64,000 nt of DNA from Atrina japonica. Lineage: Eukaryota; Mollusca; Bivalvia; Pterioida; Pinnidae. The stretch is from NCBI GenBank assembly GCA_030159075.1, contig BROG01000299.1:259501-323500 (forward strand). Direction: 5' to 3'. Numbering within the stretch: the first letter of the stretch is position 1; every line of letters begins with the position of its first letter. Below are positions 22,133-47,986 of the stretch, in pieces. A program made the position numbers and the translations under genes. The notes under the pieces were generated by a model. It saw nothing but the letters and a program-made list of their open reading frames with translations. It made no database searches and was not told where the DNA came from.

Positions 22133-22566
22133 CAATATGCCAGGCTCTAGCCATTGTTCTCATCGTCATTCACTTGATGGTTTTCCCCGATGCGGTATGG
22201 CAGAATTTTCCTGTCCAGGACTACATTCCAAATCGCTACACCTACTACACCATACTGAATGCCGTACCCACTATGTACCTGGAATGGGGATTTTACATCG
22301 GATGCGTATCAGCATTTTTTAGCTTAGTGGGTGCCGTTGGCATGTGGTCACACGCCTGCTGTTCCTGTAGCCACTTGCGAAAAGTTCGCTACCAGCTGTT
22401 GAGAGAGAAACCGGACTTTGGATCTACCCCAATACCATCGAAGCCATCTTATCCAGCCTATCCCAACCCAGGATTTGTGAGAACTTCACCCACGGAATAC
22501 CCAGCAGTAGCGCCAATGGCTGTACCAATTTCACCTGGTGCTATTGGAATGGAGCTTGATCTTTGA
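22133..22566 (+). CDS. Tetraspan claudin/PMP22-like protein, final coding exon
   Basis: 434 nt from acceptor TTTATTTTCAG to stop TGA. It completes span three (ICQALAIVLIVIHLMVFP), an outer loop with WQNFPVQDYIPNRYTYYT, and span four (GFYIGCVSAFFSLVGAVGMW). A cytoplasmic tail of about 80 residues follows, opening with HACCSCSHLRKVRYQLLREK and then rich in Pro, Tyr and Ser (YPAYPNPGF). The Cys cluster after span four could be lipid-modified. The tail lacks a clear C-terminal PDZ-binding motif. Total length of 283 aa is somewhat longer than typical claudins, mainly through the tail. I do not recognise a vertebrate orthologue. Confidence 0.87.
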
Positions 22567-30886: not shown

Positions 30887-31045
30887 ATGGGTGTGTTGAT
30901 AACATGTTATCACATTGTGGTGTTTGCAATTGATTTCGCATCAGTAGCTTACGATGTAGCTTATATAGTGATCCAACCCGAAGAGACAACGTTCAATTAC
31001 CGAGGATATGGCGGAAAATTCAAGTATTTGACATTTTGGACTATA
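30887..31045 (+). CDS. AIG1: AIG1/ADTRP-like hydrolase, alternative first coding exon 1a
   Basis: A 53-codon exon from ATG to donor ATA|GTAAGT, phase 0. It encodes the N-terminal membrane span (residues 5-27), a short loop with [11 protein letters not shown], and KFKYLTFW. Thr49 aligns with the catalytic Thr43 of human AIG1. Spliced to shared exons 2-6 it gives 238 aa, the usual length for the family. AIG1 and ADTRP are multi-span membrane hydrolases that cleave fatty-acid esters of hydroxy fatty acids, using a Thr and a His. Exon 1a lies 6.7 kb upstream of 1b and 10.7 kb upstream of exon 2, so it needs its own promoter. AIG1 versus ADTRP orthology is not settled. Confidence 0.86.
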
Positions 31046-31099
31046 GTAAGTAGACGTATATATATACACAGCCGCTTGTACATATGAGAACTATGTATA

Positions 31100-31101
<2 letters not shown>

Positions 31102-31196
<95 letters not shown>
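31102..31196. repeat. (AT)n microsatellite
   Basis: A perfect AT run of about 47 units, starting 57 bp after the exon 1a donor. Confidence 0.97.
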
Positions 31197-31198
<2 letters not shown>

Positions 31199-31397
31199 TG
31201 ATTGTCCATAGGTTTGTTGTTTAACTTCTATTAAGGCAGTTTCCTAATAACAAACGTTGCAGAATACGTTCAATCAGATCCCGGGCTATTTTCAAAAATT
31301 CGATTTCCTAATGGAGTGTACCTATAGTTCTTATGAGGTATATTGCATTTTTATACACAGTTGAGTGGATATGAAAGCCGTCTTTTGATCTCGTATA

Positions 31398-31471
<74 letters not shown>

Positions 31472-31893
31472 TATTCATGATTGTCCATAGGTTTGTTGTT
31501 TAACTTCTATTAAGGCAGTTTCCTAATAACAAACGTTGCAGAATACGTTCAATCAGATCCCGGGCTATTTTCAAAAATTCGATTTCCTAATGGAGTGTAC
31601 CTATAGTTCTTATGAGGTATATTGCATTTTTATACACAGTTGAGTGGATATGAGAGCCGTCTTTTGATCTCGTATACCTATATATATCATGATTGTCCAT
31701 AGGTTTGTTGTTTAACTTCTATTAAGGCAGTTTCCTAATAACAAATGTTGCAGAATACGTTCAATCAGATCCCGGGCTATTTTCAAAAATTCGATTTCCT
31801 AATGAAGTGTACCTATAGTTCTTATGAGGTATATTGCATTTTTATACACAGTTGAGTGGATATGAGAGCCGTCTTTTGATCTCGTATACCTAT
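31197..31893 (+). repeat. Three direct copies of a 205-bp unit separated by AT tracts
   Basis: Units at 31197-31402, 31476-31680 and 31688-31893, each starting CATGATTGTCCATAGGTTTG and ending TGATCTCGTATACCTAT. AT runs of 93, about 70 and about 8 bp precede them. Only about four bases differ across all three copies (for example AACGTTGC to AATGTTGC in copy 3 and ATGAAAGC to ATGAGAGC in copies 2 and 3). The amplification is very recent. Confidence 0.95.
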
Positions 31894-32824
31894 CACATTT
31901 ATAAAGAATATCACGAATATCTTAAAGTGTTTAGAAGTTGATGAAGTGGAAAAGGAATTTGTATGTTAAGTTGACACGCGTAATATTTTGACAAATGTCC
32001 GTAGCTCTTCAGGCCTGTCACATCATTTTACAGCCTAGTTGTTGTCCCGGATAAGCGATGGAATTTATTTAATGTATACCGTACCAGTTTATGTACTTTT
32101 TACGGAGGCTACTCATTTCTAACTCGGGTTCAGTAATACATTGTCGGCCGTGGTCATTAATGGCACCGGGAAGATAAAACCCGGTTAAAATGTAAACAGC
32201 CGACGAGGGACGAAATCGGCCGTCCGCAAGTACACTGACCTTCAGGGTGATACTAAATGAAGAACTCTAAAGAACTAGATTTTGGGGTAGTTTAGTGGGT
32301 AACATTAAGTTGTATTTACTAACAATCAATTAATTCAATACATACAAACCTACATATATTAATTGTATGGACAAAAACCTTGAATTTTATAGATTTATAA
32401 TAAAAATAGTACGTAGTAACGCTAGTTCTAGACGGCACTTTCCCTTTGTGCTTTCTTTGCTTTGATCAATCTATTGTTCCAGAATTACTCTTATACTATT
32501 TATCTATTTATTAATTTCCGTTAAATAATTAAATAATTATTATCATTTTATACCGGCCGTTTTAACTTGTCATTTACGAGATTTACGATCAACTTGTCGT
32601 TTCAAAATGGCGTCTTCTACTGCGATTTTAGTGGATCGTAAAGAAAACATAAATCTCTTTAATTCGATTAACATTAATCCCGTAAAATATGTAATATTTG
32701 AATTGCCTGCGTTCTAAAGATTACGATTCTGCTATTTTTACACATACATAATTTCCAATAGTGAAAATAAAGCTAAAGTTCTTCATTTAGGGTCGCCGGA
32801 CCTTTAGCATTAGTTTATACTCCC

Positions 32825-32960
32825 GTTTTGCACAGATCCTCCTCTCTGACTGACCTGTTTTTGAGAGATGTCGTATAGAGAAGGTTGATGCTCCAACAAT
32901 TCGACCATTGAGCGACCTTGGTGGTTGCAATGAAAGCCGCCATGTCAATACCGTTTGACG
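32825..32960 (-). mobile_element. Possible SINE head fragment
   Basis: The stretch TTGATGCTCCAACAATTCGA, ACCATTGAGCGACC resembles the gene-like word order GATGCTCCAACCATTTAGTC seen downstream of the family C SINE at 59592. Weak and eroded. Confidence 0.25.
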
Positions 32961-33959
32961 GCTTAATTTATTACTAATACTGTAATACGTGTCTAATGAG
33001 TTTCTCGGTTTCTACAGATTGCGATATTTACACCTGTTTATGTACAACGATTACCTGGGGAGACGTACGTGTGACGAACGCACCTTTTTGACTTTAGTTT
33101 CAGGGTATATGTGTACTATTTGCATGGAAATTTAGCATATGTGCTATTTTCACATCATGAAAAAGCTCGAGCCGTCAAAAGTTAGACAATCTGCGTATAG
33201 CCTAGGTGTTAAGAATATTTTAACCTCGTGGAAATAGGCCTAGCTCATGCTGCAAGTATAACACAATGGAGCACATCCACACAACCGCCGTGCACTCTTC
33301 TATTCATTTTCTTTCACATTTACACTTTTGTTTGATCTTTCTCCGGGATAAGTACTAAAGTACAGGTCTACCAAGGAAAACTGGCACACGTTTATAAACA
33401 CAACGAGTCTAAATCAAATCATAACAAGGGTGACAAGCTACATGTCGTCATAAAAGTAATAGTGATTCAGTATCGCATGTATCTGTACAACCTATTTTTG
33501 GAAAGTAGACCATTTGTTTTGGTTTTTGACTGAACCCGGATGTGCCACTTTACCTTGGTAGACCTATAGTTTATATATTGGGGGGGGGGTGGGGACATTA
33601 CATTATTTTCTGACTTACCACACCGAACGTCGGGGCATCTGTGGTTGGAACATCACATTTTTAAAAGGTCAACGGACATGACTTTTTTCCGTACATACTT
33701 TGTGTCTGATCCATACAACTAATTATAAAAAATTCCGAATGTCTAAAACCGCACCGGTCTCCTCGGTAAAAATCGGGAGATTGCGGAGCGCTTGATCTAT
33801 GATGCACACGACGCGGTTGTTACTCAGTAGTGCCAAATATTATCACAATACATAGCTTATCTATATACAGATATAATGCACAATGGTATATACTACAAGG
33901 TATTCGGATGAATGAATAAATTGGTGACTAGGTTCCTCAAGGAATGAAACATAACGACT

Positions 33960-34070
33960 GGATTATTCGGGTTAGTTTGTCCAGCGATATATAATCGGAT
34001 GTCTCTCACTTCTGGTCAGCGCAGTTTTGAGCCCCACACTAGGCTGATTTTGTAAGAAAAGATGTTATTT
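33960..34070 (+). mobile_element. SINE family C, head fragment
   Basis: Has TCTCACTTCTGGTCAGCGCA, GTTTTGAGCCCCAC and CTGATTTTGTAAGAAA, matching the head and start of the body of the copy at 59592. Confidence 0.5.
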
Positions 34071-34263
34071 AAGAGATTTCCTGACAAACAATTGCATTCC
34101 AGCTTTTTTTCAACAGATTTTGACCAAGAAAACATGGTCATTCTTTTCTTTGACCAAGTTTTGATGGCGGAAAATTTTGACGATGGTGTCAACACAGCTT
34201 TAGCTGTCTTTTCATAACCATTCAGTCCTGTTGCTTGTGCAACTGCTTACTTCCCGCGCGCGC

Positions 34264-34294
<31 letters not shown>
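34264..34294. repeat. (GT)n microsatellite
   Basis: A perfect GT run of about 15 units. Confidence 0.95.
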
Positions 34295-34297
<3 letters not shown>

Positions 34298-34714
34298 TAT
34301 ATTATACCCGGACACAAAGCAATGGAAATTCAAATCCGCTGAAGTGTTTGTAAGAAGGTTAACACTAGAATTCGGCGAGCGATTCAATTGTACATGCTAA
34401 ATATGTATACAAGCGGAAATGATAACTTTAGTGTGAAGAAGTAGCCTATAGTTGCTTGTGGTTGAACAAAGTCAATAAGAATGTTTGTTCTGTGGCGTAA
34501 GAAAATAAAAGGGGGGGGGGGGTAATATACACTGATTACATTTTTAAAAAGGCTTAAGTGTTAATAATATAAGAATTTTGTTTGTATGTAGAAAAGTGTG
34601 GGGAGGGACGCCCTCGTTCCTATACGCCTGTTGTCAGTCGGTAAGGCAGCGATTTCAAATCTGGACTATCCGTTGTGGATGGTAACTAAACACCCCTTTA
34701 TATACTGATTGCAT

Positions 34715-34924
34715 CTATACTGGTCGGGGACCAGTTGCCTGCTTTGGTGTCATTTCGCCTTATGTACCACGACAATATTTTTTCTTCTCTTTGAGAAAAA
34801 TGTCCATCATCTCATGATTGATTTAAAAAAAAAATTCTCACAACATCGAGCTCTACATACGGCCGAAATAATGCAATATCCGGCAACTGGTCCTAGCAGG
34901 TTACTTGGTCGCCGATCAGTATAG
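34715..34924. mobile_element. MITE with CTATACTGGTC ends
   Basis: About 210 bp. CTATACTGGTCGGGGACCAG at the left and GGTCGCCGATCAGTATAG at the right are imperfect inverted repeats. Internal inverted words ACCAGTTGCC and GGCAACTGGT extend the arms. A worn relative is at 25935-26130. Confidence 0.78.
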
Positions 34925-35097
34925 ATACTACAGTGAAATAGGCCAGTCTGCTGCAGAACGTGGTTGTATGCTTACTTTCCTGGATACTCGTGAGGAGAAA
35001 TAAAAATCTCGATTATCTCGGATTAGCCGTACAAAGTCGAGTAAAAGGTGTTTCCAACCCGAACAATTTCATTTGTAGCTCGATCTATTAGTGTTTT

Positions 35098-35180
35098 CTC
35101 ATCAACCCGTGAAAAAATGGACTCTTCTGTACATCAATGACTTAGACCAGCCTAAATGTGTATTTAGGGGTGAATGAGTT
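35098..35180. mobile_element. TTAA-type mini-MITE, group 1
   Basis: CTCATCAACCCGTGAAAAAA, core GGACTCTTCTGTACATCAAT, and ATTTAGGGGTGAATGAGTT at the right. Confidence 0.72.
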
Positions 35181-35429
35181 GAGAAAGTGTTGAACGTTGT
35201 TCTCATCAATATTGATTATGTTTTGTCATTCCATTGATTTATAACAATCTTCTGTTGGGCACCTGTATAGCAGGTGTTATGTAATTATATAGAGCACTAA
35301 AATAGTAAATAATTAACAACCGTAATATGACTTAAAACCTTGTGTATCTTTATCTGAATCCTGTGTAAAATGCTGACCGCACTCTGTATCAAAAAATCCA
35401 TACGCGTGGAAATAAACGGCTACAGTGTC

Positions 35430-35460
35430 TTTTTTTTTGGGGGGGGGGGGGGGGGGGGGG
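35430..35460 (+). repeat. T9G22 homopolymer block
   Basis: Nine T followed by 22 G, then TGTGGGG. A run this long could fold as a G-quadruplex, or could be a copy-number-uncertain assembly position. Confidence 0.9.
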
Positions 35461-35639
35461 TGTGGGGTGTTTAACGGCATAGGCCTTTTTGTAAATTTAA
35501 GCCAGATAAAATAACAGCTGTATATTGTATACTATTTTTGAGAATTTCTCAAGTAAAGGTTAGTTCGCCATAATTTGGGAACCATCGGCACAGTAACAAA
35601 CAGATTTCCCTATTTTTCAAGAATGAGTACACATCATAG

Positions 35640-36500
35640 GCGTCGGAAAGCAAATTGAAAGTGGGGGTGCTAAACCAACATAAAACACACACACGCCAGA
35701 AACGTCTGGGGACTAAGCCCCAATTTTCAACACCTATGTCTATCTTTGCAAAAAAGTGGGGGCTAAGCCTTGGTACCTTGACTTTTGACCTAGTCACCTT
35801 GACCTTAGACTTTGATCTACTTTTCCAAAACTTTAACCTTGGCTATGGTTTTTAAACTATGAGGGATAGGGCTTTGATATTTCGCATGTAGATTTCTTAT
35901 GATCAGTGCCCGAAGTCACCAAATTAACTCAGTACTCAAGCTCAACTAACTTTTCACGATTTTAAGGTAAAAACATGCAAACTTCATTCTGTAACTGGAC
36001 ATTTTTGTATATTGATGGCATACAATTGTAAATGATGATAAAAATCATTGCTCATCTGAAGAAAATTTAAGAAATATTTAAAGAATGTTTGAGTACGTAC
36101 TCAAATCTTGAGTACCGTACTCAACATATTTATCCGGGTTTTTACAGGAAAATTATGTGTGGCGCAAAAAAATATAAATTGTATATAAATGATTAAAAAT
36201 CAAAGTATGTTTCCTAATCACTAAAATCCAAAAAATAAACAATTTTACAGTCCAAATAATGAAATAAAAGTTGAGCTTGAGTAAATTTGGTGACTTCGGG
36301 CCCTGAGGTTTCATTTGGTACCTTTACTTTTGATCTAGTGACCTTGACCTTGAACTTTGATCTACTTTTCCAAAACTTTAATCTTGGCTAGAGTTTTTAA
36401 ACTATGAGGGATAGGGCTTTGATATTTCGCATGTAGATTTCTTATGGCCCAGAGCTTTCATTTGGTACCTTGATTTTTTTATCTTCCAGCCTTGACCTAG
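35640..36500 (+). repeat. Interspersed repeat with CCTTGACCTTGAACTTTGAT words, split by a MITE
   Basis: The segment at about 35770-35905 (TGACCTAGTCACCTTGACCT, then AAACTATGAGGGATAGGGCT and GATATTTCGCATGTAGATTT) recurs at 36315-36445 with few changes. A 394-bp inverted-repeat element (35908-36301) lies between them. The (C)TTGACCTTGA style repeat is common in molluscan DNA; its class is unknown to me. Confidence 0.65.
35908..36301. mobile_element. MITE with GCCCGAAGTCACCAAATT ends
   Basis: 394 bp. The left end GCCCGAAGTCACCAAATTAA and the right end AATTTGGTGACTTCGGGC are an 18-bp perfect inverted repeat, extended imperfectly by ACTCAAGCTCAAC against GTTGAGCTTGAGT. It is inserted between two similar repeat segments. 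End-like pieces also occur at about 61618-61650 and 63338-63365. No coding content. Confidence 0.85.
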
Positions 36501-37565
36501 AACTTTGATTTTTAACCTGACTGTTGAAGGAATCAAAATTAAACGGGTCAAATATGTATAATTTACACCCATTTCCGCGAGCTTTGTTGTGTTCTGGCAA
36601 CTCTTGATGTTATTGTATATAAACGTAAGCAATAAAAAGGGGGAAAATGACAAATACACAGCTAGTACAGATAATCGTTACACAATGTACTTTATCTATT
36701 CAAAATATAAAAATTTCTATTTTTGTTTTTATCTTTTCTTTTATTCATTTATATCTTTTTACTTTTTATTCAGTTTTTGAAAAGTGAAATTACTTTTTAT
36801 AATCATAGCTGGCATGATAACAAAATTTTTGACAGGAACAGCAATGGACACATATGTATCAAAAAGTGCTGGAAACTTAAAAATAATAATATTGCAATCT
36901 TTTCATGCAAAACTGGGGCCTTTTCATGAAAACAGTGATAATTAATTCTTACGTGAATTTTTAAGCTTTAGGTCTCTGTTACCATCAGCGGTTCTGACAC
37001 CCATTAAAACGGCTTCTCCTACAAGGAATCATGTCTGGTCAAACCTCATTTCCCATTACATTTTGTAACTTGAACTATCTTTTTGAAATAATTCGTTTCC
37101 AGTGTTTCCATCTTTAAGTCTGTTTTCTTAAAAATTTTCAACAATTATATTTGAATACATACATATTGACCTCCTGACATGTTTAGTTTAACCTGGTTGT
37201 TAATTAGGAAGTTACATGCATTTATTCTTGCTTAGTTAATTTTGCGAAATCATTTCCTTCTTGTTCTTAATTAGTAAACTACTCCAAGTAAAAAAATTCT
37301 GGTAATGATCGATATTATGTTGTATCTAGAAATTTTACAATCATAGAATGAAAATAAACTTTATGGATTAATCTTTAAGTCAAAGAGAGTCAGTCATGAA
37401 ATTTAAAAGAAATTGGTCAAAAACATACCCAGGAGAATATTTCAAAAAGATAATTTTACATACAAAAGTAATGACGAAATGACGTTTGTTCATAAACTTA
37501 TGGCACTAGATCTATACTATGTACAATGTATACGTAGCTAACCCAGTCTTTTCAAAAATGTTAGT
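36501..37565. other. AT-rich stretch without a gene
   Basis: No recognisable coding or RNA signal. It is the region from which the exon 1b promoter would be expected near its right end. Confidence 0.4.
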
Positions 37566-37698
37566 GTGTCGGTCGATTGCCAAGTGAAATATCAACGGGA
37601 AGTAACTCTTATGCCACAAAGCAGGTGCGCGTCGGTTGTAAGTGCTGCTGAATGGTTGTGTATTTCCCCGTTATACTTGACAAAATACATGAGTCAAC

Positions 37699-37848
37699 AT
37701 GAAACAGATTGTATCAACGTTTTACCACATAGCAATTTACGTCGTTTATACATATTCTCTGGCGTATGATGTGATTAATGTCGACCTGGGGGGAAAACTA
37801 TGGCAGAACTACGGCGGAAGGTTTAAATATTTGACATTTTTGAATCTG
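37699..37848 (+). CDS. AIG1: AIG1/ADTRP-like hydrolase, alternative first coding exon 1b
   Basis: 50 codons from ATG to donor CTG|GTATGA, phase 0. It encodes a membrane span (STFYHIAIYVVYTYSLAYDV) and a loop with LWQNYGGRFKYLTFLNL. The YGG(x)(x)KxLTF(x)xL pattern is closer to vertebrate AIG1 than exons 1a and 1c are. Thr46 is the predicted catalytic Thr. Joined to exons 2-6 it gives 235 aa, and the catalytic His then falls at position 134, the same number as in human AIG1. The donor (GTATGA) is weaker than the GTAAGT of 1a and 1c. Confidence 0.82.
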
Positions 37849-38126
37849 GTATGACTGCAGTTTAATTTAACTTTTCTACTGTATTACATCATTTCTTTTT
37901 TTTTTTAAATAATTACATCTGAACAGCATTTTTTGCACACACAAGATAAGGTTTTGTTTAGAATGTATTATTCAAACAAAACTTTATATGTCAACTTAAC
38001 CTTTGAAAATAAATCTAGGCTGTCGCGTTCTTTTAACATAACAAAGAAGGCAGTACCTATATGGGGCTAAAGGTCGCCATGTGATCATTGTTTTACTTCC
38101 GGGACATTATCTGGCCTTAGTTAGAC
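37849..38126 (+). promoter_or_regulatory. Probable promoter and 5' UTR region of exon 1c
   Basis: Only 278 bp separate exon 1b from the ATG of exon 1c, so the 1c promoter must lie here or within 1b. An ETS-type site TTTACTTCCGGGACAT sits at about 38092-38107, 20-35 bp before the start codon. No TATA box is evident. The promoter call is an inference. Confidence 0.4.
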
Positions 38127-38285
38127 ATGGACTTCTTACGGATTTTCTTTCACTTTGTCGTATTCACCATTCTGTTCTGTTCATTTGTGTACAACATCAA
38201 ATATGTAGCTATTGATCCCAAAGAGGGAGTTACGACGTATCGAGGATATGCCGGGAAGTTTAAGTATTTAACGTTCTGGTATTTT
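38127..38285 (+). CDS. AIG1: AIG1/ADTRP-like hydrolase, alternative first coding exon 1c
   Basis: 53 codons from ATG to donor TTT|GTAAGT, phase 0. It encodes a membrane span (FFHFVVFTILFCSFVYNI), a loop (AIDPKEGVTTYRGYAGK) and KFKYLTFW with Thr49 as predicted catalytic Thr. It is closely parallel to exon 1a in length and in the [18 protein letters not shown] block, so 1a and 1c look like duplicates of one another, while 1b is the divergent member. With exons 2-6 it gives 238 aa. Confidence 0.86.
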
Positions 38286-38599
38286 GTAAGTATATACGTC
38301 ACTGTATCGGGGTGTTTGTAGGCCTACGTACACGAACCGACATTGGCGACAAGGTGACAATCGGTGCACATAGTTCAGTCTTAGGATCCACACACAGACT
38401 AACGCTCGGGTGGGTAGTGGGTGATGTGACAATCGCAAGTGATTTGTTGATTTACGGAGAGCATTTCAAAATGTCATATGATTTATAAGTGTAATGAGAT
38501 CAATGTTTGTTATGTTCCCGGGGGTGTATGTGTGTGAATGTGTGCGGGCGGGGGGGGGGGGGGTGGTGGTGGGTGGTGGTGTTGTGTTGTCACAATATA

Positions 38600-38710
38600 C
38601 ATGTCACATGTTTTGTGTATGTATTAAGAGGCATGGTATTGTAAGTATATATATCTGGGTGTTCGTATGTACACAAACCAACAAGGTGACAGCCAGTGCC
38701 TGTAGTATGA
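38600..38710 (+). pseudogene. Decayed duplicate of the exon 1c donor region
   Basis: TGGTATTGTAAGTATATATA at about 38634 parallels TGGTATTTTGTAAGTATATA at the exon 1c end. The following ACACAAACCAACAAGGTGAC, AGCCAGTGCCTGTAG parallels ACACGAACCGACATTGGCGA, CAAGGTGACAATCGGTGCAC. Coding sequence for KYLTF is not recoverable upstream, so it is at most a relic of a fourth first exon. Confidence 0.5.
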
Positions 38711-39139
38711 ATGGCCGATTAAGTCACAAATGAGATGAACTAGGCCGGTAAGGCGACTTGAATTACTGAAACAAAGCTGAAACACACTTAAATTAGTAGA
38801 GAAAGATACAAATGTCAAAATATATGTTGTCTAAGTATTTAAAAAATGTAATTTGTAACATGATTTATGAGTATTTATGGATTAATTCTGAATAAATTTC
38901 CAAAACAGCACCGAAATACACTAAAGTTACCGAAACAGACCGAAAAACACCACACTTACTGGAGCAAGATACAAATGTTGTAGTATAATATATGTTTCGG
39001 TAAAACGTCCGACCCAACTAGGCCTATCGTGGTTGCCACTTTCATAATAAAATATGCGAAAATATGTGATAAAACATACTTTTATCATAAAAGAGGTCAT
39101 TGTGTTAATTCTGACCCATTTGTGACAAAATACAGCCTT

Positions 39140-39270
39140 TTATAACAAAGTTCAGTCTTAAGATCCATACACAGGCTAACACTCAGGGTGGGGTTTGTGG
39201 TGGGGCAATCATGTCATGGCATTTGGTAATGGTGGATTTGTTTATTTACGGAGAGCACTTCAAAATGTCC
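39140..39270 (+). repeat. Second downstream copy of the post-1c segment
   Basis: AGTTCAGTCTTAAGATCCAT, CACAGGCTAACACTCAGG and TTACGGAGAGCACTTCAAAA parallel AGTTCAGTCTTAGGATCCAC and TTACGGAGAGCATTTCAAAA at about 38365-38475. Confidence 0.75.
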
Positions 39271-40313
39271 GAGTAGTGCTAAGAGAAAAATGTTCCCGTG
39301 GGGATGTAACTTGGATGGCTCCCACAATGTACGTGTCTTTAGTATATGTGGAAGTTCTTTTGACCCCCTCCCAACCCACACGCACTCATTGATTGTAAAC
39401 TAATGAAGCGTTACATTGTGTACTACATAATTAAAAGATTTATAATAGTATATTAATAATATCAACTTGAATGAGTCAAATATTTCCTGTATTAATTAAT
39501 AATTTACCAAATAATCGATGAGAACATATAATTACTATTATAAAAATATAGAAATGTTTCATTCCAAAATCGGGTAGTCATAGGGGAATCCCGATCCAAC
39601 ATTAGCTCTGACTATAGTCCTGTAACACAGGAACTTGCATGGTGGGTGGTGATATTTATATCTTCTTTTTTTTTTCTTTTTTTTTTTAATAATTCTTAAT
39701 TTACAAATCAGTTTTCTACTGGACAAGACAGAAACATGGCATGACATTCACAAAACATCAACACATACATACATATAAGTAACTGTATAAACACTAATTT
39801 TTTCACATTTTCGGAAAAACAAAAAATGAAAATATCAGCATGAAAATAACAGGATAATCATTTAATGTGAAGGCATATACCAGTACATATACATGTATTA
39901 TTAATTATAGGACTAGCTAACCCTATACATGTACATATACATGTAGATGTTGTACTGATAGTGTGTACATTGTACATATATGTACAATGTACCAATTCTT
40001 TACATGTATTTGTGTATATTTTGAAAGGCAACAGTGTACTGGTACCACTAGAAGCCACGTTTGCTTGAGGACATCATGTACTGTAAATTATTTTTGTATC
40101 AAACATTTAGAGTGTGTGATTTATGATAATATCTTGTTCTCTGTATGGATGATTTAATTTCATTTTGTATATAATATACGTATCTATGTAATCTATCTAA
40201 AAAGACTGGGCCTAGTTGAAAACGAGCTTTTTATTGACTATAAGAAAAATATTTTTATCTTCGTTTATTTATAGATTGATCAGCTACCTGTTCATATGTA
40301 CATGTACTTGTAT

Positions 40314-40501
40314 TACAGTGAAATTTATATAATGACCTCCTTAGGGACACAAGAAAATTGGTCTTTATAGGGAGGTGATCTTTATATATAGATGTTGATT
40401 TGTACACAAATGGTACTACATATGTATTGGGGACAGCAAAGAAAACAGTCTTTGTGACCAGGTGGTCTTAATACACAGGTGGTTGCTAAAGCAGGTTTTA
40501 C
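40314..40501. mobile_element. MITE with TACAGT ends (GACCACCTGGTCACAAAGAC type)
   Basis: The left end TACAGTGAAATTTATATAAT and the right end AGCAGGTTTTACA are short imperfect inverted repeats. Interior GTGACCAGGTGGTC and GTACACAAATGGTACTA recur, inverted, in the copy at 44900-45106. A fragment lies at 43113-43203. Confidence 0.72.
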
Positions 40502-40564
40502 ATTAGTTGTATATTGCATACATGTACATGTATATTAATTGCATAGGAGACGTCATATTTATTA

Positions 40565-40652
40565 TTAACTCATCAACCCTTGAAAAATAATGGACTCTTC
40601 TGTAAATCAATGACAGGTCGGCTCAAATGTGTCTTTAGGGGTGAATTAGTTA
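40565..40652. mobile_element. TTAA-ended mini-MITE, group 1
   Basis: TTAACTCATCAACCCTTGAA, core AATGGACTCTTCTGTAAATC, and TTTAGGGGTGAATTAGTTA. Confidence 0.75.
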
Positions 40653-40943
40653 CTGAAAGATAAACTATTTCAAACATTTTACTTTTACAAATGTAGTATT
40701 TCTGTGGACAAATGTCTCAGATTGGGTAGATCACTCAGGGTTGGCAAGTGTGGAAAGTGAAAATAGGTGTTTGTGTGTGTGTGGGGGGGGGGGGGGGGGA
40801 ATTAGAGGGCAGCGGGATTTGTTTGTATCAGCATACTTGCAAACATATGAAAATTTTCAAGGGGAAGATCGCGTACGGCTAAAATTTTCAGCGTTGAGCC
40901 AGACTGTGTTCTGTTGTTGTAGAGGTGAAATGAATATCAGAAT

Positions 40944-41039
40944 TTAATGTTTTCAACACTAAATATTACAATAGACTGGTCTAAGGCAATAAGAAAGAGC
41001 ATACCATTGAGATATTTAAGGGTGAAATACTTGGTAATT
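40944..41039. mobile_element. Mini-MITE, group 2, worn copy
   Basis: TTTTCAACACTAAATATTAC, AATAGACTGGTCTAAGGCAA and GAGCATACCATTGAGATATT match group 2 interiors. The ends have lost the perfect TTAACCC. Confidence 0.6.
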
Positions 41040-41070
41040 AAATATTCATGATAAACTATCAATTCATATA

Positions 41071-41264
41071 CAGTGGAATCTCATAATGGCAAAATCGGAT
41101 GAGTCAAAATTCCGGATATTTTAAGGTTGTACAGCCAGTCCAGATTTTTATGGATAGAAAAAAAAATGCTAATTAAAAATTTTGTTTATCTCAAATTCTG
41201 GACATCTTGAAGTAATAAGGACAGTCCCATGAATTTCGAGATAATAATGAGATTCTACTGTATT
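41071..41264. mobile_element. MITE with ATACAGTGGAATCTCAT ends
   Basis: 194 bp. ATACAGTGGAATCTCATAAT at the left is the inverse of TAATGAGATTCTACTGTAT at the right, a 17-bp inverted repeat with one mismatch, flanked by TA. The style is Tc1/mariner-like and it has no coding content. Confidence 0.8.
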
Positions 41265-41405
41265 TGAATATTTGCCTTTTCTACAATGCATATTATTTCT
41301 TCCATTCTCTTGGTTACATTATTTAATAGTGAAAGGTGTCTTGAGAGATTACCATTGTGAATGAACTCCTGTCTTAGGACACTACAATTAAAACACGCTT
41401 CTGAT

Positions 41406-41593
41406 AACCCATCCATCCCTGAAGTCACATTTAGACTCATCTAAATCAATAGATAGCATGGTCTACTTTCAAAATTCAGGTGTGTGCAAGTTAAATGTAG
41501 ATTCAAAATCATACACTCCCTAATTCTGATAGTGGACTTTACCATTCTTTGAAATGGGTGAGTTCAAATCTGGCTACAGGGTCCAAGGAGTTA
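41406..41593. mobile_element. Mini-MITE, group 3
   Basis: AACCCATCCATCCCTGAAGT at the left and CTGGCTACAGGGTCCAAGGA before GTTAA at the right. Interior GACTTTACCATTCTTTGAAA and ATCAATAGATAGCATGGTCT are shared with the other two group 3 copies. Confidence 0.65.
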
Positions 41594-41747
41594 AATGAAC
41601 CTCTGTGGGGTGATTATCTATCTCAAGATGCCACATTGTTGTGGCAGAATGGGTGGTCTCTTAAGTTGGGTTCCATTGTATGGTAAGAGTTTATTATTTG
41701 CCATTTGGATACTGACATATAAAATGTTTTGTTTGAATTTTTGACAG

Positions 41748-41894
41748 ATTTTACAGACAGTTTATTTTGGATTATGCGTTGCCAATGACCTTTGTGGATC
41801 AAACGTACGACCCTCACAAAAAGGTCAAACAAGGTCAAGGTTACAGAGATGGCGAGATTACTTACTGGCTACATTAGTATTCCCATTAGGAATG
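41748..41894 (+). CDS. AIG1: AIG1/ADTRP-like hydrolase, shared exon 2
   Basis: 147 nt, 49 codons, phase 0 at both ends (acceptor TTTTTGACAG, donor ATG|GTAAGT). It encodes ILQTVYFGLCVANDLCG, the second membrane span, then a basic loop (SQKGQTRSRLQRWRDY) and LLATLVFPLGM starting span three. QTVYFGLCV and WRDYLLATLVFPLG match the family pattern recalled for AIG1 (QAVFFGICV and RDWMLAVLAFPVG). Every first exon can join it without changing frame. Confidence 0.92.
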
Positions 41895-42365
41895 GTAAGT
41901 ATATGTATGTAGATTTGCAGTAGAGCTTTCTTGATGTTTCGAACTATTGACAAAGTCCCAATTATTTAGTTACATGTATTCAACGCTTCTTATAAATGAT
42001 TTATAATTCAAACCTTTTGACTCAAATTTCTCAATGTTTTAAAATTTTTTATGAACAGTTTATATTTTGAACTTTTATGAGTCGAATTTCTCGATGTTTT
42101 GATTAAAATTTTGGGCCCATTTATATAAAAACATAAAATATTTGTACAAATAATTCGTAGTAAAAATTAACATGTGCCTCATGACAATTTTTCTCCTTCT
42201 CATAATCACTTGATGTTTTAACATAACAAAAATTAAGATATTTTCAGCATTGAGTACTAGATATCATATATATAATTATTATATACCCTACTTTCGTTTT
42301 CCATTCTCTTAACATCAGATGAAAAGATGCAATATCCTACCCAGGCCACAAAATAACAGAATTCA

Positions 42366-42426
42366 TCGTAACCCATTTACAGGTTACGCTAAAAGGAATG
42401 ACGATAGGCGTAACCTGTAGGTTATG
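42366..42426. repeat. Hairpin-forming inverted repeat
   Basis: AACCCATTTACAGGTTACGC pairs with GCGTAACCTGTAGGTTA across a loop of about 18 bp. This may be a small MITE or the core of one. Confidence 0.75.
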
Positions 42427-42536
42427 ATAGCAATAATGAAGACTTGATAATGAAATTCATCGAAAACGAAAAAGAGGTTGCATGATTTGTATTTGTCATA
42501 ACTTCCATGTAACCTGAACAATCACTTCCATGTTTT

Positions 42537-42811
42537 TATGTCCCCGGCCTGAAAGATCAGCCGGGGGCATCTAGTGTTTGGATCGTCCGTCTGTCTGTCC
42601 GTAATTCCATCTTACTTCTGTGCCGCTTACGTATAAAGTGCAATATTTCAAGTTTGGATTGTGATACAGTAACCAAACTTGGAATATGTTCATCTAAGGG
42701 TTGCTCACACTTCACTGACATCACATGCCCCTGGGGGTAGGGTAAAAATGTTGGACATTGCAATATTTAAATTATACATATTATTTGCCATCATAGAAAT
42801 TTGTGAAGACT

Positions 42812-42846
<35 letters not shown>

Positions 42847-42850
42847 ATGA
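42537..42850. mobile_element. Interspersed element with CCGGGGGCATCTAGTGTTTG
   Basis: Starts with GGCCTGAAAGATCAGCCGGG, then GTCCGTCTGTCTGTCCG, and ends TGGGGGCATTTGTGTTTCAC, AAACACATCTTG. I recall this as a very common non-autonomous element of bivalve genomes. Its class is unresolved and it contains no gene. Confidence 0.65.
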
Positions 42851-43015
42851 TCTGCTACCATATATGCCTGGGACTGGTTTTGAGGTTAGTGTAACATCAT
42901 GTTATGAATGAGGTTACATCATTGTGTGACTTTATATGAGGAACTTCATTCATAGTAAATATAAACACTGTCTAGATTAACACTGAGTCAGTGGGTGTAA
43001 ATATTGTTGCACTGT

Positions 43016-43110
43016 TTTTTGTTTGAAATATTTACGCCCTCGTTCTTGGCGTGGAGAAGTACCTTGCGAGCTTGGTCTTTTGCCGCGTCAAGAACTCTGC
43101 AGCTGCAGCT
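43016..43110 (-). other. Coding-like stretch of unknown origin (minus)
   Basis: The minus-strand frame reads [20 protein letters not shown] followed by GVNISNKK, using varied non-AT codons unlike the surrounding intron. It may be a fragment of a retrocopied or transposed gene. I do not recognise the family, and the flanking part is MITE. Confidence 0.3.
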
Positions 43111-43264
43111 GCTTAATGACCACCTGGTCACAAAGACCATTTTTTGCTTTCTTGTGTCCCTGAAAAGGTCATTATATATAGAAGTTTCCCTGTATACAGT
43201 CAATAACCTATACTTATATTCACGGGTTTATTTGATGATTAATGATTGTTTTATTTCTTTTCAG

Positions 43265-43366
43265 TTCGTTGTATTATCATTTTGGGGAATTTACGCGATT
43301 GATAGAGAACTCGTTTATCCAAAAAGCTTAGACGCAATCATTCCATCGTGGCTAAATCATGTTATG
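43265..43366 (+). CDS. AIG1: AIG1/ADTRP-like hydrolase, shared exon 3
   Basis: 102 nt, 34 codons, phase 0 at both ends (acceptor TTTCTTTTCAG, donor ATG|GTGAGT). It encodes [20 protein letters not shown] and [13 protein letters not shown]. The IYAxDRExxYPK block and the WLNHxM end are highly characteristic of AIG1/ADTRP proteins. The His in WLNH is conserved but is not the proposed catalytic His, which follows three residues later in exon 4. Confidence 0.93.
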
Positions 43367-43439
43367 GTGAGTTTTCAAGGTTATGTCAGTCAAGTGCTAG
43401 AGATAACAGATCAGTCATGTTGCCTTCAGTTTCTCTATT

Positions 43440-43653
43440 ACCTCGTCATACCCCTGTGGTCACATTTAGACTCACCCGAATCAGTAACTGTAGAGTCTAT
43501 TGTCCAAATTCAAGGGTGAACAAGTTAATATTGAATGTGAAATTATTTTGAAATTTGGATTCTAATTACAAACTCCTGAATTCTGACAATGGACTTTACC
43601 ATTCTTTGAAATGGATGAGTCCAAATGTGGCTACAGGGAGTCAAAGAGTTAAG
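43440..43653. mobile_element. Mini-MITE, group 3, longest copy
   Basis: CCTCGTCATACCCCTGTGGT at the left and GGCTACAGGGAGTCAAAGAG before TTAA at the right. Shares GACTTTACCATTCTTTGAAA and GGATGAGTCCAAATGTGG with the other group 3 copies. Confidence 0.65.
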
Positions 43654-43849
43654 ATATACTTTCTCATTAACAATATTTCAGAGTCATAGAAAGCTGTGTA
43701 AATAAATAAAGAATCTGAGTAACTGTCACTTCTATTGGGTGAATTTATTTGATATGTATTCAATCTCCATCAATGTAAATAACTTGGAAAAGATATTTCA
43801 AAAACATTTAGGCAAAATGCGTGATGTTTCATTTTCAAAATACTGAGAC

Positions 43850-44465
43850 CACTTGCAGTGGTCTTACTAGTAGAGAGCTGGCCTGGCTCAGTCGGTTGCG
43901 TGCTCGACTCTTGATCGTGAAGTTGTGAGTTTGAGTCCAGCTGGCGGCATGTTGGTTTCTTGTCTTTCGGTTGAGACAGTAAAAATCGAGGTCCAGTGTC
44001 ACAGTAGGTGTCGGCACGTTAAAGAACTCTCACTGCTCAATGGCCATAAGTGCTGAGCATATGCCAAAAATTTGAAGCCCTTCACCGGCATTTGGTGACG
44101 TCTCCATGTAAGTGAAAGATTCTTGAGTGGGACGTTAAACAACAATAAACAAACAAACTTACTAGTAGAGTGTTTGACTTGAATGGGTAAGGTCACAGGT
44201 CATACCGACATACCAAAGACTTTGAAAAATGGTAGTGACTTTTTTTTTCCCAAGCGCTTCCCATACAAAGTGAAAGTCATGGGTCTTTAGGATGAGGCTA
44301 GAAACTGTGGTCCCATGTTGTGCATGGTAGACGTGGCACTGAGAAGAACCCCCACTGCATTGGCCTTAGTACATAGCACAGGTCTAAATTTGTGGCACTT
44401 TTCCTTGTGACATCTCCCAATATCAGTGTAAAACATCAACATGATCAACGAAACTAAAATCCAAA
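43850..44465 (+). mobile_element. Family B SINE, interrupted copy
   Basis: The head begins at about 43855 (GCAGTGGTCTTACTAGTAGAG), is split by the family A SINE, and resumes at 44158. The body then has ACATACCAAAGACTTTGAAA, AAGCGCTTCCCATACAAAGT, AACCCCCACTGCATTGGCCT and CATAGCACAGGTC, parallel to the complete copy at 8439-8707. It carries an extra stretch around 44280-44330. Confidence 0.78.
43877..44157 (+). mobile_element. tRNA-derived SINE, family A, copy 4 (nested)
   Basis: Full-length. Head with A-box TGGCTCAGTCGGTTGCG and B-box GAGTTTGAGTCC, body with GTGTCGGCACGTTAAAGAAC and GGCATTTGGTGACGTCTCC, tail ACGTTAAACAACAATAAAC. It is flanked by a perfect 13-bp duplication CTTACTAGTAGAG (43863-43875 and 44158-44170), so it inserted into a pre-existing family B copy. 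Confidence 0.92.
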
Positions 44466-44556
44466 AACAAGAAAAAGATTGTTGATGAATCGACAAAAAA
44501 AAAAAAAAATCATCAGAAAATTGTTAATTGATTTGCTTTTTTTTTTTGTATTTCAG

Positions 44557-44672
44557 CATACAACGATTCTACCATTTTTGCTTCTTGATATATCTTTGAA
44601 TTATCACCAGTACCCCAGCAGAAAATCAGGAATTATTACACTTCTTTCCTTTGCATTGTTTTATTTACTATG
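44557..44672 (+). CDS. AIG1: AIG1/ADTRP-like hydrolase, shared exon 4
   Basis: 116 nt (acceptor TTTTGTATTTCAG, donor TG|GTAAGT, ending in phase 2). The first codon is the predicted catalytic His (HTTILPFLLLD), aligning with His134 of human AIG1. It continues with SLNYHQYPSRKSG, a family hallmark, and the next membrane span (ITLLSFALFYLLW). The Trp codon is split across the exon 4/5 junction, which confirms the splice. Confidence 0.93.
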
Positions 44673-44899
44673 GTAAGTATTATTTATAAAAAAATAAACC
44701 TTTTTTTCAAATTGTAGCATTTTGTACAGTTTTGTCGATTTTACTCGGATTTCGTCACTTCAACAGAGTCGGGCAAGATCACTTTTGGTTTTGTAATATT
44801 TACATTGACGACATTCATTGATATCTTGTTTGAGTTCATCCGCCAGGAGTAAAGAAAATAGACAAGTAACATTACTTTTCTGTAGGCTGCCTTTCAATT

Positions 44900-45106
44900 T
44901 ACAGTACAACCTGCTTTAGTGACCACTTGTGTATAAAGACCACCTGGTCACAAAGACCATTTTTGCTGTTCCCAATAGAACCAGTTGTGTACAAATCAAC
45001 CTTACATAAAGTTTGATTTGTACACAAATGGTACTATTTTGAACAGCAAAAAATAAAAGTTTTTGTGGGTCCCTATGGAGGTCGTTGTATACAAGTTTTA
45101 CTGTAA
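44900..45106. mobile_element. MITE with TACAGT ends, inverse copy
   Basis: TACAGTACAACCTGCTTTAG at the left and ACAAGTTTTACTGTA at the right. Interior AGACCACCTGGTCACAAAGA and TTGTACACAAATGGTACTA match the copy at 40314-40501 in reverse. Confidence 0.78.
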
Positions 45107-45109
45107 TTA

Positions 45110-45170
45110 ATAAACTGATCTCTCACTGCTGTTGTTTTCTGATATGTCGCGTAGAGGATCTAACACAATC
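45110..45170. repeat. Short interspersed repeat with CTGATATGTCGC
   Basis: The stretch AACTGATCTCTCACTGCTGT, TTTCTGATATGTCGCGTAGA recurs at about 52318-52370 and 58245-58300. Origin unknown. Confidence 0.55.
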
Positions 45171-45217
45171 AGTTATGGGGTCATGTGTAGCTGACCTTGC
45201 ATAGACGTGTACTGTAA

Positions 45218-45303
45218 TCATCAAACTCTGACAGACAATGGACTATTCTGTAAATCAATGACTTAGACCAGTCCAAATGTGTTTTTAGGGATAAATGAGT
45301 TAA
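45218..45303. mobile_element. TTAA-ended mini-MITE, group 1
   Basis: CAATGGACTATTCTGTAAAT core, GACTTAGACCAGTCCAAATG, and TTTTAGGGATAAATGAGTTAA at the right edge. The left end is worn. Confidence 0.7.
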
Positions 45304-45914
45304 CATCGAGAAGGAAGATGCAGTATCTTATCATAGAGTTCTCTCTTTGTTCTGTCAAGAAGGTACATGTATTGTGATATATCCAAACAGAAATTTCCGA
45401 TAAATTTGTTGAAATTGCCACTTGGTGTCACTTAAAAGAAGCTTTTTCTTTTAAGTATTATGGTAGTAAGGGTCGGAGACAACTAAAATTATTTTTCCAT
45501 AGGAGATAATGTTTACAATTTTGTCATGTTCGTGTACATCACAACTTTTGAGTGAATGCTGTCCTTCAGTCTGACGTATAAATCCTAAATCGATCTGTTC
45601 GGCGTACATTGGGCAATCAGAAAATAAACACATAACATAGACGTGAACATCTTGTTTTTCTGTCACATGTGTATATTTCAACCCCCCCCCAGTACTTTTG
45701 CAGTGAATGGACACAGAAATATACTTTTCAGGAAATTGACTCTTAAGTTTATCTAAGTATCAGTACAGATTATGTTGATTCAAGGTTTTTTATTCTTAGT
45801 ACATAAATCTACTGTGTTGAAATTTAAAATTTGTCTGTAGATACAGACACCAGGTTACATTTAAAATAACAATTCCTCTCTACCTACACTTTTTCTAACA
45901 ATCAATTTCTGGGG

Positions 45915-46196
45915 TACTGTATACGACCTATTAAGCGCCCAGTGCGCTACAAAATTCAGGAAAAAGGGGTGGTTGCTTAATGGAACCAATTAATAGTCAA
46001 AATGTTGTTGTAGTTATTACCGAGGACAACTATCAACATTTTTCTGTTGCTAGGGGGCGCTACAGATGAACTGTTAGTTACAGTGTTTCAGGTCTACATC
46101 TCCTTGTCAACCAGCTAGAAAAGATTCTGGATCATGTGCACTAAAGGGAGAGGGTTGCTTATAGGGACATAGGCACTTAATAGATCATATACGGTA
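45915..46196. mobile_element. MITE with TACTGTATACGACC ends
   Basis: 282 bp. TACTGTATACGACCTATTAA at the left inversely matches TTAATAGATCATATACGGTA at the right, with four mismatches in 20. The arms continue with GGTGGTTGCTTAATGG against GGGTTGCTTATAGG only as direct words, so the arms are short. No coding content. Confidence 0.75.
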
Positions 46197-46818
46197 TTTA
46201 GTTGTCCCTGACCTTAGCGCATGATGGAGGTAGTGCTGGAACATTATTTTAAAGTGACATACACTATCAGCAAACTTAGAAACGATAGAAACAAGTACCG
46301 ATAATGATAACTTACATAGGTAAACATGCAGGCCTTATTTCTGCCAATGTTGGGGAAATGTCTTTGGAGACATTGATAATTTGGGAATGTTCATTTGAAT
46401 TCGTGTCACACTGGGGAAAGTAGTTTGTGCATATTTAAATCTGAATGGAATGGCATATCTTTTGTAAATGCGTTTCATCCTGCATGAATAATTTTTTATT
46501 TGACTTTTTTTGGAGGGGGATTTTTTTTTCCCGTCACATTGTAAAAAATAAACATGTATTTTGCATTGGGAATTGGGTTGAATATTGGCCCGGTGGAAAC
46601 TAAAGAATACTATTCAATAGACCGGACAATTCAGGGTACTCCTCTGGAATTTTTAATTCATCTGCCAAATTTTTGGCCAAATCTAAATTGATTACATACA
46701 TATATTGTACATGTTGTATATACTCCTGGCATTTATTTATGTGTTTACGATTGCTTAGAATTGATATGGCAACAAAACAAAAGAAATGTATTATTGTGTT
46801 TAATTACGTCTGTTTCAG

Positions 46819-46970
46819 GATATTATGGATAGCCTATAAAGCAAATCTTTGGGTCTACCCCATCCTGAAGGTTTTAGCACCACATCAGAAGGCAGCCTTT
46901 ATTGCACTCATGATGGTCGTGTTTCTATTTATATACGTGCTGGGCGAACAACTGAACAAAATGATATGGG
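46819..46970 (+). CDS. AIG1: AIG1/ADTRP-like hydrolase, shared exon 5
   Basis: 152 nt (acceptor TCTGTTTCAG, donor G|GTAAGC, phases 2 to 1). After completing the Trp codon it encodes ILWIAYKANLWVYPILKVL, then APHQKAAFIALMMVVFLFIY and VLGEQLNKMIW. The WVYPxL and YxLGExLNxxIW blocks are family hallmarks and include the last membrane span. The open frame continuing to 47032 is intron read-through. Confidence 0.93.
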
Positions 46971-47945
46971 GTAAGCATTTCTATTGGTTAAGGAAACAGA
47001 TTTTGCATGAAGGTCCATTAACATTCATTTGATTTTTAAAAGTTCTCATGTCAATCAGGAGTCATATAATATTAAATTTGAGTTATCCCCCCTTTGACCA
47101 GAAAACTGTGAAAACACTATAGGACTTTAGGACTATACCTCCCCAGATAAGTTGTAGGAAGAAAGTTCCCTCATGAAAGAGGCAGAATAGATTGATAATA
47201 TTTAGAAAAATAATTATAACGTTATGAGTATAAGAAATTCAGGGCTTTGTCTGATCTATATCCATAGAAGCCAACCTGAACGGGCAAAAGACCCATTTGT
47301 GAAGTGAACAGGAGTGGTATAGGATGTAAAAATGTATCAAAATCCATAGAAGATATAATCAGACAATTTAATGTGTATCAAGTGAGAACTGCTGTTTTAA
47401 GTCAAATTATGTGTGAGAAACACCAGTACTGATTACACTGGTCACTGTCATGTTTTTTTTATGGATAATTGTCAATGTTGTATCTTGAACCTGATCATCT
47501 ATTTTGTTGCTTCATGACATACCTTGGTATTGTTAAGAGTATGCTATCATAAAATCTAAACCATGAAACATATTTGTTTTGAACTGCACTCACACATAGG
47601 CAATGCCTTATATGATTATAATAAGTAAGAAAAGAGCATCAATAAGTAATTCAGTCGAACCGGCATATATTGAAGTCAAAGGGGAATGAATAAACAGTTG
47701 TTTCAGAATAACTTAATCATAAATAATTAAAAAATGGCCGGGGAATTAAAATCATTTCAAATAAATCATGATTTCAATGTAACAGGGTTCAATAAAGTCG
47801 ATTTGATTGTATATGATTCACACTGTCTCTAGATCATGATTAAAAAAGCATGTAGTAGTAGTATAAATTCTCAAATATTAAAAGAGTGTATTCAAGGGAG
47901 ATAACAAAGTTTTCATTAAGTTTTGTTTTGTTTTCGATTTTTCAG
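46971..47945 (+). other. Intron 5 of the AIG1-like gene
   Basis: No element stands out clearly. A possible MITE lies at about 47655-47815 (AGTCGAACCGGCATATATTG at the left, GTCGATTTGATTGTAT at the right). It ends TCGATTTTTCAG. Confidence 0.65.
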
Positions 47946-47986
47946 GAAAAGAGAGATCACATTTGGTAGCCAAGAAAACAAGATGA
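47946..47986 (+). CDS. AIG1: AIG1/ADTRP-like hydrolase, final coding exon 6
   Basis: 41 nt after acceptor TTTTTCAG. It completes a Gly codon and encodes GKERSHLVAKKTR, then TGA. The last four residues, KKTR, fit the KKxx dilysine signal that retrieves membrane proteins to the ER, provided the C-terminus is cytosolic. The short basic tail matches the family's usual polar C-terminus. Confidence 0.85.

What the first reader, a model, noticed from the sequence alone, without database searches (positions are those of the whole stretch)
30887..47986. AIG1-like hydrolase gene with three interchangeable first coding exons
Seen: three separate exons (30887-31045, 37699-37848, 38127-38285) each start with ATG, encode one membrane span, end in KYLTF plus 2-3 residues, and stop at a donor in phase 0. 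Only one set of exons 2-6 follows, and its acceptor is phase 0. Known: AIG1/ADTRP enzymes use Thr43 of the LTF motif and His134 (human AIG1 numbering). Inference: the gene makes three proteins that exchange the N-terminal span and the half-site carrying the catalytic Thr, probably under three promoters, giving tissue- or substrate-specific hydrolases from one locus. I am not aware of a description of such an arrangement for this family.
Basis: partly seen in the sequence, partly recalled or inferred. Interest (0 to 1): 0.88.

Follow-up and report, generated by a model that had tools for sequence, protein, structure and literature searches.

The report
Lipid-hydrolase gene with three alternative beginnings
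A mollusc gene for a membrane enzyme of the AIG1/ADTRP kind, which probably cuts fatty-acid esters, has three interchangeable first coding exons in front of one shared body, and gene models of related shellfish and a lamp shell show the same design, so it looks like an old way of making several enzyme versions from one gene rather than an accident of this genome.

Summary
Exons 1a, 1b and 1c each have an ATG, an in-frame stop just upstream, one hydrophobic span, the KYLTF motif with the conserved Thr, and a phase-0 GT donor. One set of exons 2-6 follows (41748-47986, all GT-AG). Each joined protein is a full PF04750 protein. Three searches of the 832-Mb source genome matched only at this locus.

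The strongest evidence is comparative. Of 45 homologue pairs with bodies at least 85% identical, 11 have first exons only 28-52% identical; all 11 are lophotrochozoan as far as named. Three of them are within one species and 100% identical after exon 1: Sinanodonta, Dreissena and the brachiopod Lingula. First exons group by type across species, bodies by species or genus. One species-specific triplication is rejected (AU p = 0.0003).

Best reading: one gene with three alternative 5'-terminal coding exons, probably under three promoters, swapping TM1, the first loop and the segment bearing the catalytic Thr. The layout is that of GCNT2 and UGT1, in a family for which my searches of an open-access library found no such description. 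No transcripts of this species were available. Promoters and tissue or substrate specificity are untested.

The parts
30887..31045 (+). alternative first coding exon 1a (53 aa; TM1, loop, start of TM2 with conserved Thr49, codon 31031-31033); donor GTAAGT at 31046
   Evidence: a-type relatives in oysters (P0005, P0007, unnamed oyster-like P0002) and Pinctada (P0001)
37699..37848 (+). alternative first coding exon 1b (50 aa, short-loop type; Thr46, codon 37834-37836); donor GTATGA at 37849
   Evidence: b-type relatives in Mytilus, Dreissena, Pecten and a chiton
38127..38285 (+). alternative first coding exon 1c (53 aa; Thr49, codon 38271-38273); donor GTAAGT at 38286
   Evidence: c-type relatives in oysters (P0004, unnamed oyster-like P0003) and Mytilus trossulus (P0008)
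41748..41894 (+). constant exon 2, acceptor phase 0, shared by all three first exons
43265..43366 (+). constant exon 3
44557..44672 (+). constant exon 4; its first codon is the conserved His (H137 of isoforms a and c, H134 of b)
   Evidence: this His is present in 167 of 168 aligned homologues
46819..46970 (+). constant exon 5
47946..47986 (+). constant exon 6 with stop codon

Best explanation
This is a single mollusc gene of the AIG1/ADTRP (FAR-17a/AIG1, PF04750) integral-membrane hydrolase family, with a variable-plus-constant layout. Three homologous 5'-terminal coding exons, each with its own start codon and a donor in the same phase, can each be spliced to one constant set of exons 2-6. 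Shown by sequence: the exons, frames and splice sites; the single body found in the assembly; related exon types in other species; and gene models elsewhere with identical bodies and different exon 1. Inferred: each first exon has its own promoter, each transcript skips the other first exons because those lack acceptors, and all three are used in this species. The swapped part is TM1, the first loop and the first turn of TM2 with the catalytic Thr; the conserved His comes from constant exon 4. All isoforms therefore keep the catalytic pair but differ in the span and loop next to it. The likely effect is tissue- or condition-specific expression, and possibly different substrate or membrane preference.
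For: Anatomy and coding. Family: each isoform has PF04750 at 208-224 bits, and six hydropathy peaks above 1.2 are seen in each. Uniqueness: the whole-genome searches hit only this locus. Control: of 12,407 homologue pairs compared, 45 have bodies >=85% identical. Trees: exon 1 groups by type over species and bodies group by species or genus. AU tests reject holding together the window trio (p 0.0003), the oyster-like pair P0002/P0003 (7e-9), the Mytilus set (0.006) and the Dreissena pair (0.006). Thr is present in 163 of 165 homologues that have a letter there and His in 167 of 168. The model of homologue P0003 (pLDDT 95.5) has helix 2-27, a loop with a short helix 44-47, and helix 49-70 starting next to Thr50; by alignment exon 1 ends at residue 54. 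No acceptor-like site lies in the 300 bp upstream of any of the three ATGs (0 of 43 AGs).
Against: There is no transcript evidence from this species; use of each first exon here is inferred. Of the 11 divergent-exon pairs, only three are within one named species; seven are between species and one (P0002/P0003) has no names. The proteins compared are the best-listed 120 of 316 and 120 of 523 hits of lophotrochozoan queries, plus 3 more, so the absence of such pairs outside Lophotrochozoa is weak. The exon-1 tree rests on 54 columns; the branches that define the a, b and c groups (95/78, 83/89, 94/87) do not reach the tool's starred level, and 1a with 1c alone is only weakly rejected (0.024). 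The Lingula pair forms its own clade and the Sinanodonta pair was not rejected as a clade (p 0.18), so those may be independent exon duplications. Pecten maximus P0009 and P0033 have clearly different bodies, so in scallops the types seem to lie in separate genes. The acceptor scan is crude: about 1.1 chance sites were expected over the three stretches, and its cut-off would miss two of the gene's five real acceptors. First-exon donors score 7, 6 and 6 of 9 against 8, 8, 8 and 6 for exons 2-5, and 16% of all GT sites in the window reach 6.
Confidence: 0.88

Rival explanations
1. Only one first exon is functional. The other two are relics of tandem exon duplication that still look intact.
For: No RNA data for this species; donors 1b and 1c score only 6 of 9; 1a lies 10.7 kb upstream of exon 2 beside AT repeats.
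Against: All three frames are open with a start and a GT donor. The exon types appear to predate the split of the window species from oysters and mussels, so non-functional copies should have decayed. Each type has relatives used as exon 1 in other bivalves.
Confidence: 0.07
2. Three tandem genes whose bodies were collapsed or lost in the assembly.
For: Two AIG1-type genes with different bodies occur in one species, e.g. Pecten P0009 and P0033.
Against: No second body was found in the 832-Mb assembly by three searches or in the 6.7-kb 1a-1b interval. The 1b-1c gap is 278 bp, too small for a body. Gene models of three other species show identical bodies with different exon 1.
Confidence: 0.03
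3. Mutually exclusive internal exons of one transcript with a single upstream promoter.
For: The exons are homologous and share donor phase.
Against: Each exon begins with an ATG preceded within 18 nt by an in-frame stop, and none has an acceptor-like site within 300 bp upstream by a crude scan. A shared untranslated exon farther upstream, joined to weak acceptors, is not excluded.
Confidence: 0.05

Closest known systems
GCNT2 (IGnT) cluster
   Same: Three tandem, homologous first exons in human, mouse and rat, each with an N-terminal transmembrane segment, spliced to a common constant set; orthologous exon types among eutherian mammals (PMC1885805, abstract and section 7 read).
   Different: Different enzyme family (glycosyltransferase); variable exons much larger (recalled). 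Separate promoters and splicing are stated there and only inferred here. GCNT2 exons expanded within vertebrates.
UGT1 cluster
   Same: Variable first exons with constant exons downstream; the N-terminal domain binds the acceptor substrate and holds a proposed catalytic base (PMC1885805 abstract).
   Different: Nine functional isoforms in human (abstract of PMC1851988 in the listing), Rossmann-fold domains and broad detoxification; I made no sequence comparison, and a relation to AIG1 is not known to me.
Human AIG1 and ADTRP
   Same: Same Pfam family; Thr and His needed for FAHFA hydrolysis (ADTRP T47/H131 in PMC8123165, passage read; AIG1 Thr43 in PMC8394805, passage read).
   Different: Separate genes. 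The passages read mention UniProt isoforms for ADTRP but do not describe an array of homologous first exons; I did not examine the human loci.
Lophotrochozoan AIG1-like gene models (Sinanodonta, Dreissena, Lingula; between species also oysters, mussels, Haliotis)
   Same: Same or similar body with a different exon 1.
   Different: At most two types per species were seen in the listed hits; the window is the only place where I saw all three. Known to me only from protein records, not from a description.

Membership tests
FAR-17a/AIG1 (PF04750) membrane hydrolases | Pfam profile above the curated cut-off over the whole protein | tested here: met
   208-224 bits against 24.5, all three isoforms
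FAR-17a/AIG1 (PF04750) membrane hydrolases | six membrane spans | tested here: met
   six 19-residue hydropathy peaks above 1.2 per isoform, the fourth weak at 1.24; the model of homologue P0003 has five long helices and a broken pair (130-137, 140-150) at the fourth peak
FAR-17a/AIG1 (PF04750) membrane hydrolases | conserved catalytic Thr and His | tested here: met
   LTF Thr in all three first exons, His at the start of exon 4; of 168 homologues 163 have Thr, 3 a gap (truncated), 2 another residue (P0071, P0073), and 167 have His (P0021 not); roles from PMC8123165 and PMC8394805 passages
FAR-17a/AIG1 (PF04750) membrane hydrolases | FAHFA hydrolase activity | not testable with these tools
   needs an assay
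multiple-variable-first-exon genes (GCNT2/UGT1 type) | tandem homologous first coding exons with the same donor phase upstream of one constant exon set | tested here: met
multiple-variable-first-exon genes (GCNT2/UGT1 type) | each variable exon separately spliced to the constant set | tested here: inconclusive
   no RNA for this species; gene models of three other species with identical bodies, and contigs of 1253 and 1464 bases that code the full ORF (P0002, P0003; source 'lgn', which I take to be SRA assemblies, not verified)
multiple-variable-first-exon genes (GCNT2/UGT1 type) | own promoter before each variable exon | not testable with these tools
   only weak indirect evidence: no acceptor-like site in the 300 bp upstream
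multiple-variable-first-exon genes (GCNT2/UGT1 type) | orthologous variable exons across species | tested here: met
   exon-1 tree and AU tests; modest support, 54 columns, group branches not starred
mutually exclusive internal exons | acceptor in front of each alternative exon, frame open into the exon | tested here: not met
   in-frame stops 3-6 codons upstream of each ATG; no acceptor-like site found by a crude scan

The most novel reading that the evidence does not exclude
An ancient isozyme switch in Lophotrochozoa: one AIG1-type lipid hydrolase gene has kept two or three alternative first exons since at least the early bivalves, and perhaps since before molluscs and brachiopods split. 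Each gives the enzyme a different TM1 and entrance loop beside the catalytic Thr, and so a different lipid substrate or membrane.
Probability: 0.35. Interest if true: 0.65.

Novelty: new member of a known kind. Interest (0 to 1): 0.5.

Why it matters
AIG1 and ADTRP are membrane hydrolases that depend on a Thr, and how they recognise substrates is, to my knowledge, poorly understood. My sequence search of the PDB found no chain at E<=1, and the fold search had no match at E<=0.001. Here nature has swapped only the first 50-53 residues, including the catalytic Thr, while keeping the rest identical. These are ready-made chimeras that let the role of TM1 and the first loop be tested directly. The case also adds a lophotrochozoan membrane enzyme to the variable-first-exon genes known from vertebrates (GCNT2, UGT1), and it warns that counting AIG1-like genes in molluscs by N-termini will overcount.

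Tried and rejected
Considered and rejected: separate genes or lost bodies; mutually exclusive internal exons; recent species-specific triplication (AU p 0.0003; the sets tested were named by species or locus, but after I had seen the tree). Flank comparison: apart from the coding part, the first-exon flanks (3 kb each side) share only short matches that look like dispersed repeats, so they carry no dating signal. A region-limited protein search with exon 1b gave only 3 weak hits (P0121-P0123). PDB sequence search with isoform c: no hit at E<=1. PDB fold search: 323 hits with E<=10, none at E<=0.001, so no fold assignment. Literature on FAHFA and molluscs: one paper, unrelated by its title and abstract. 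Literature on alternative first exons and bivalves: three papers listed, none opened. Two primary AIG1/ADTRP papers are not held, so the catalytic residues rest on passages of two other papers. AIG1 His134 I know from recall and from the finding; PMC8394805 numbers it His181 in its own scheme. Not done: dN/dS of the first exons (no orthologous DNA was available), and expression analysis.

Rows dropped: P0001 (Pinctada, chimeric gene model) was left out of the all-protein alignment (168 of 169 fetched proteins) and of the body tree, but its exon 1 was used in the exon-1 tree. The exon-1 tree used 35 of 169 fetched proteins plus the 3 window exons; the body tree used 34 plus the window body. Alignment A3 used 81 of 169 and left out P0021, which lacks the His, and truncated models; Thr and His are invariant in it for that reason too, so I give the counts over 168 instead. 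One search compared only pairs with at least 25 shared exon-1 columns and 100 shared body columns: 12,407 pairs. The 169 proteins are the best 120 of 316 hits, 3 of 3 and the best 120 of 523, with overlap, from a database clustered at 90% identity. Below the 85% body cut-off, one search also lists divergent-exon pairs of unnamed proteins (P0019, P0027, P0029) and, with exon-1 identity 0.60-0.67, of fish and mayflies.
Full report
Observation. All three first exons start with ATG, have an in-frame stop 3-6 codons upstream (30869, 37690, 38118), end in KYLTF plus three residues, and stop at a GT donor in phase 0. Exon 2 begins in phase 0 at 41748, and the remaining introns are GT-AG and in frame to the stop at 47986. 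The three joined proteins (238, 235 and 238 aa) each match PF04750 at 208-224 bits and each show six hydropathy peaks above 1.2, the fourth weak.

More than chance. Among 59 homologues from other species, 54, 52 and 48 match 1a, 1b and 1c in the window by tblastn at E<=1, and 28, 9 and 16 at E<1e-5. The 12 other places matched in the window have a best E of 0.033, and none is a fourth first exon or a second body.

One gene. The source genome (832 Mb, 2347 contigs, unnamed) was searched with PF04750, isoform c and isoform b. All hits (3, 6 and 6) lie at this locus. The search is exon by exon and not exhaustive (isoform c missed 1b and isoform b missed 1c), so a divergent second gene is not excluded. 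The 278-bp gap between 1b and 1c leaves no room for a lost body.

Same design elsewhere. In the listed homologues (best 120 of 316, 3 of 3, and best 120 of 523) I compared identity before and after the exon-1 boundary. Of 12,407 pairs of 168 proteins, 45 have bodies at least 85% identical. In 34 of these the first exons are also fairly alike (0.62-1.00). In 11 they are not (0.28-0.52), and all 11 are lophotrochozoan as far as named: bivalves, Haliotis and Lingula. Seven pairs are between species (oysters, Mytilus, Haliotis; one of them holds the unnamed P0002) and one is the unnamed pair P0002/P0003. The queries were lophotrochozoan, so other animals are under-sampled.

Age. In a tree of 38 first exons, 1c groups with the oyster-like P0003, Saccostrea P0004 and Mytilus trossulus P0008 (94/87); 1a groups with Pinctada P0001 and oysters P0002, P0005 and P0007 (95/78); and 1b falls with Mytilus, Dreissena, Pecten, chiton and two unnamed short-type exons (83/89). 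None of these three branches is starred; the nine-row set holding both a and c types is (96/87). In the body tree the same proteins group by species or genus. Holding the window's three exons together is rejected (p 0.0003), as it is for the oyster-like pair (7e-9), the Mytilus set (0.006) and Dreissena (0.006); 1a with 1c alone is rejected weakly (0.024). It is not rejected for Sinanodonta (0.18), and the Lingula pair forms its own group (90/92). So the types most likely predate the split of the window species from oysters and mussels, the short b type may be older still, and the Lingula case may be independent. The tree has only 54 columns.

What is swapped. In the model of homologue P0003 (pLDDT 95.5, pTM 0.90), helix 2-27 is TM1, residues 28-43 are a loop, and after a short helix (44-47) helix 49-70 begins just before Thr50. 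By alignment exon 1 ends at residue 54. Of 168 aligned homologues 163 have Thr in that column, 3 are truncated there and 2 have another residue; 167 have the His of P0003 position 137. The corresponding Thr is in each first exon and the His is the first codon of exon 4. Published work assigns hydrolase activity to this Thr/His pair in ADTRP and AIG1 (passages of PMC8123165 and PMC8394805; the primary papers are not held). All isoforms therefore keep the catalytic pair; the variable parts are TM1 and the loop, whose length differs between b and a/c.

How it most likely works. Each first exon is probably a true 5'-terminal exon: it has its own start, an upstream stop, and no acceptor-like site within 300 bp (0 of 43 AGs; about 1.1 expected by chance over the three stretches, so this is weak). 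A transcript starting at 1a would skip 1b and 1c because they have no acceptor. For GCNT2 the stated arrangement is a distinct promoter before each variable exon and separate splicing to the constant exons (PMC1885805, section 7). Promoters themselves, tissue use and substrate preference are inferred and untested here.

Known or new. The layout is that of GCNT2 and UGT1. No paper on this layout in the AIG1/ADTRP family turned up in the listings of my searches of the held open-access library: 'AIG1, ADTRP, alternative first exon' gave no paper with the last term among the 20 shown of 27. Further searches were 2 papers; 12 shown of 1,710; 2 papers. This library lacks most subscription papers. 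Public protein records already contain such isoforms. I rate the finding as a new member of a known kind.

Noticed in passing
P0001 (Pinctada imbricata FSP39_010246): The gene model holds an a-type first exon, an insert that looks like retroelement sequence (by recall, not searched) and two tandem, non-identical copies of the exon-3 segment (ending LNHMQ, then LNHVM). This suggests a duplicated exon 3 in pearl oysters; none was seen in the window.
   Followed up: partly
P0009 and P0033 (Pecten maximus, same listed contig length): Long-type and b-type first exons sit on clearly different bodies, so in scallops the types appear to be separate genes; this may be a case of splitting an alternative-first-exon gene.
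   Followed up: partly
P0002, P0005, P0007 (oyster a-type): The conserved LTF motif reads LTN in these a-type first exons; the catalytic Thr is kept and the Phe is lost.
   Followed up: no
P0071 and P0073 (both named Plakobranchus ocellatus): These two homologues align no Thr at the catalytic column; whether this is a gene-model fault was not checked.
   Followed up: no
window 15136-16027 +: Two slightly overlapping open stretches match the reverse transcriptase profile RVT_1 in consecutive parts, in keeping with a broken retroelement.
   Followed up: no
window 22114-22563 +: An open stretch gives only a sub-threshold Claudin_2 match (E 0.07); possibly an exon of a neighbouring membrane-protein gene.
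   Followed up: no
window about 31103-31196 and 31400-31466: Long AT dinucleotide runs, the first beginning about 60 bp after the 1a donor.
   Followed up: no
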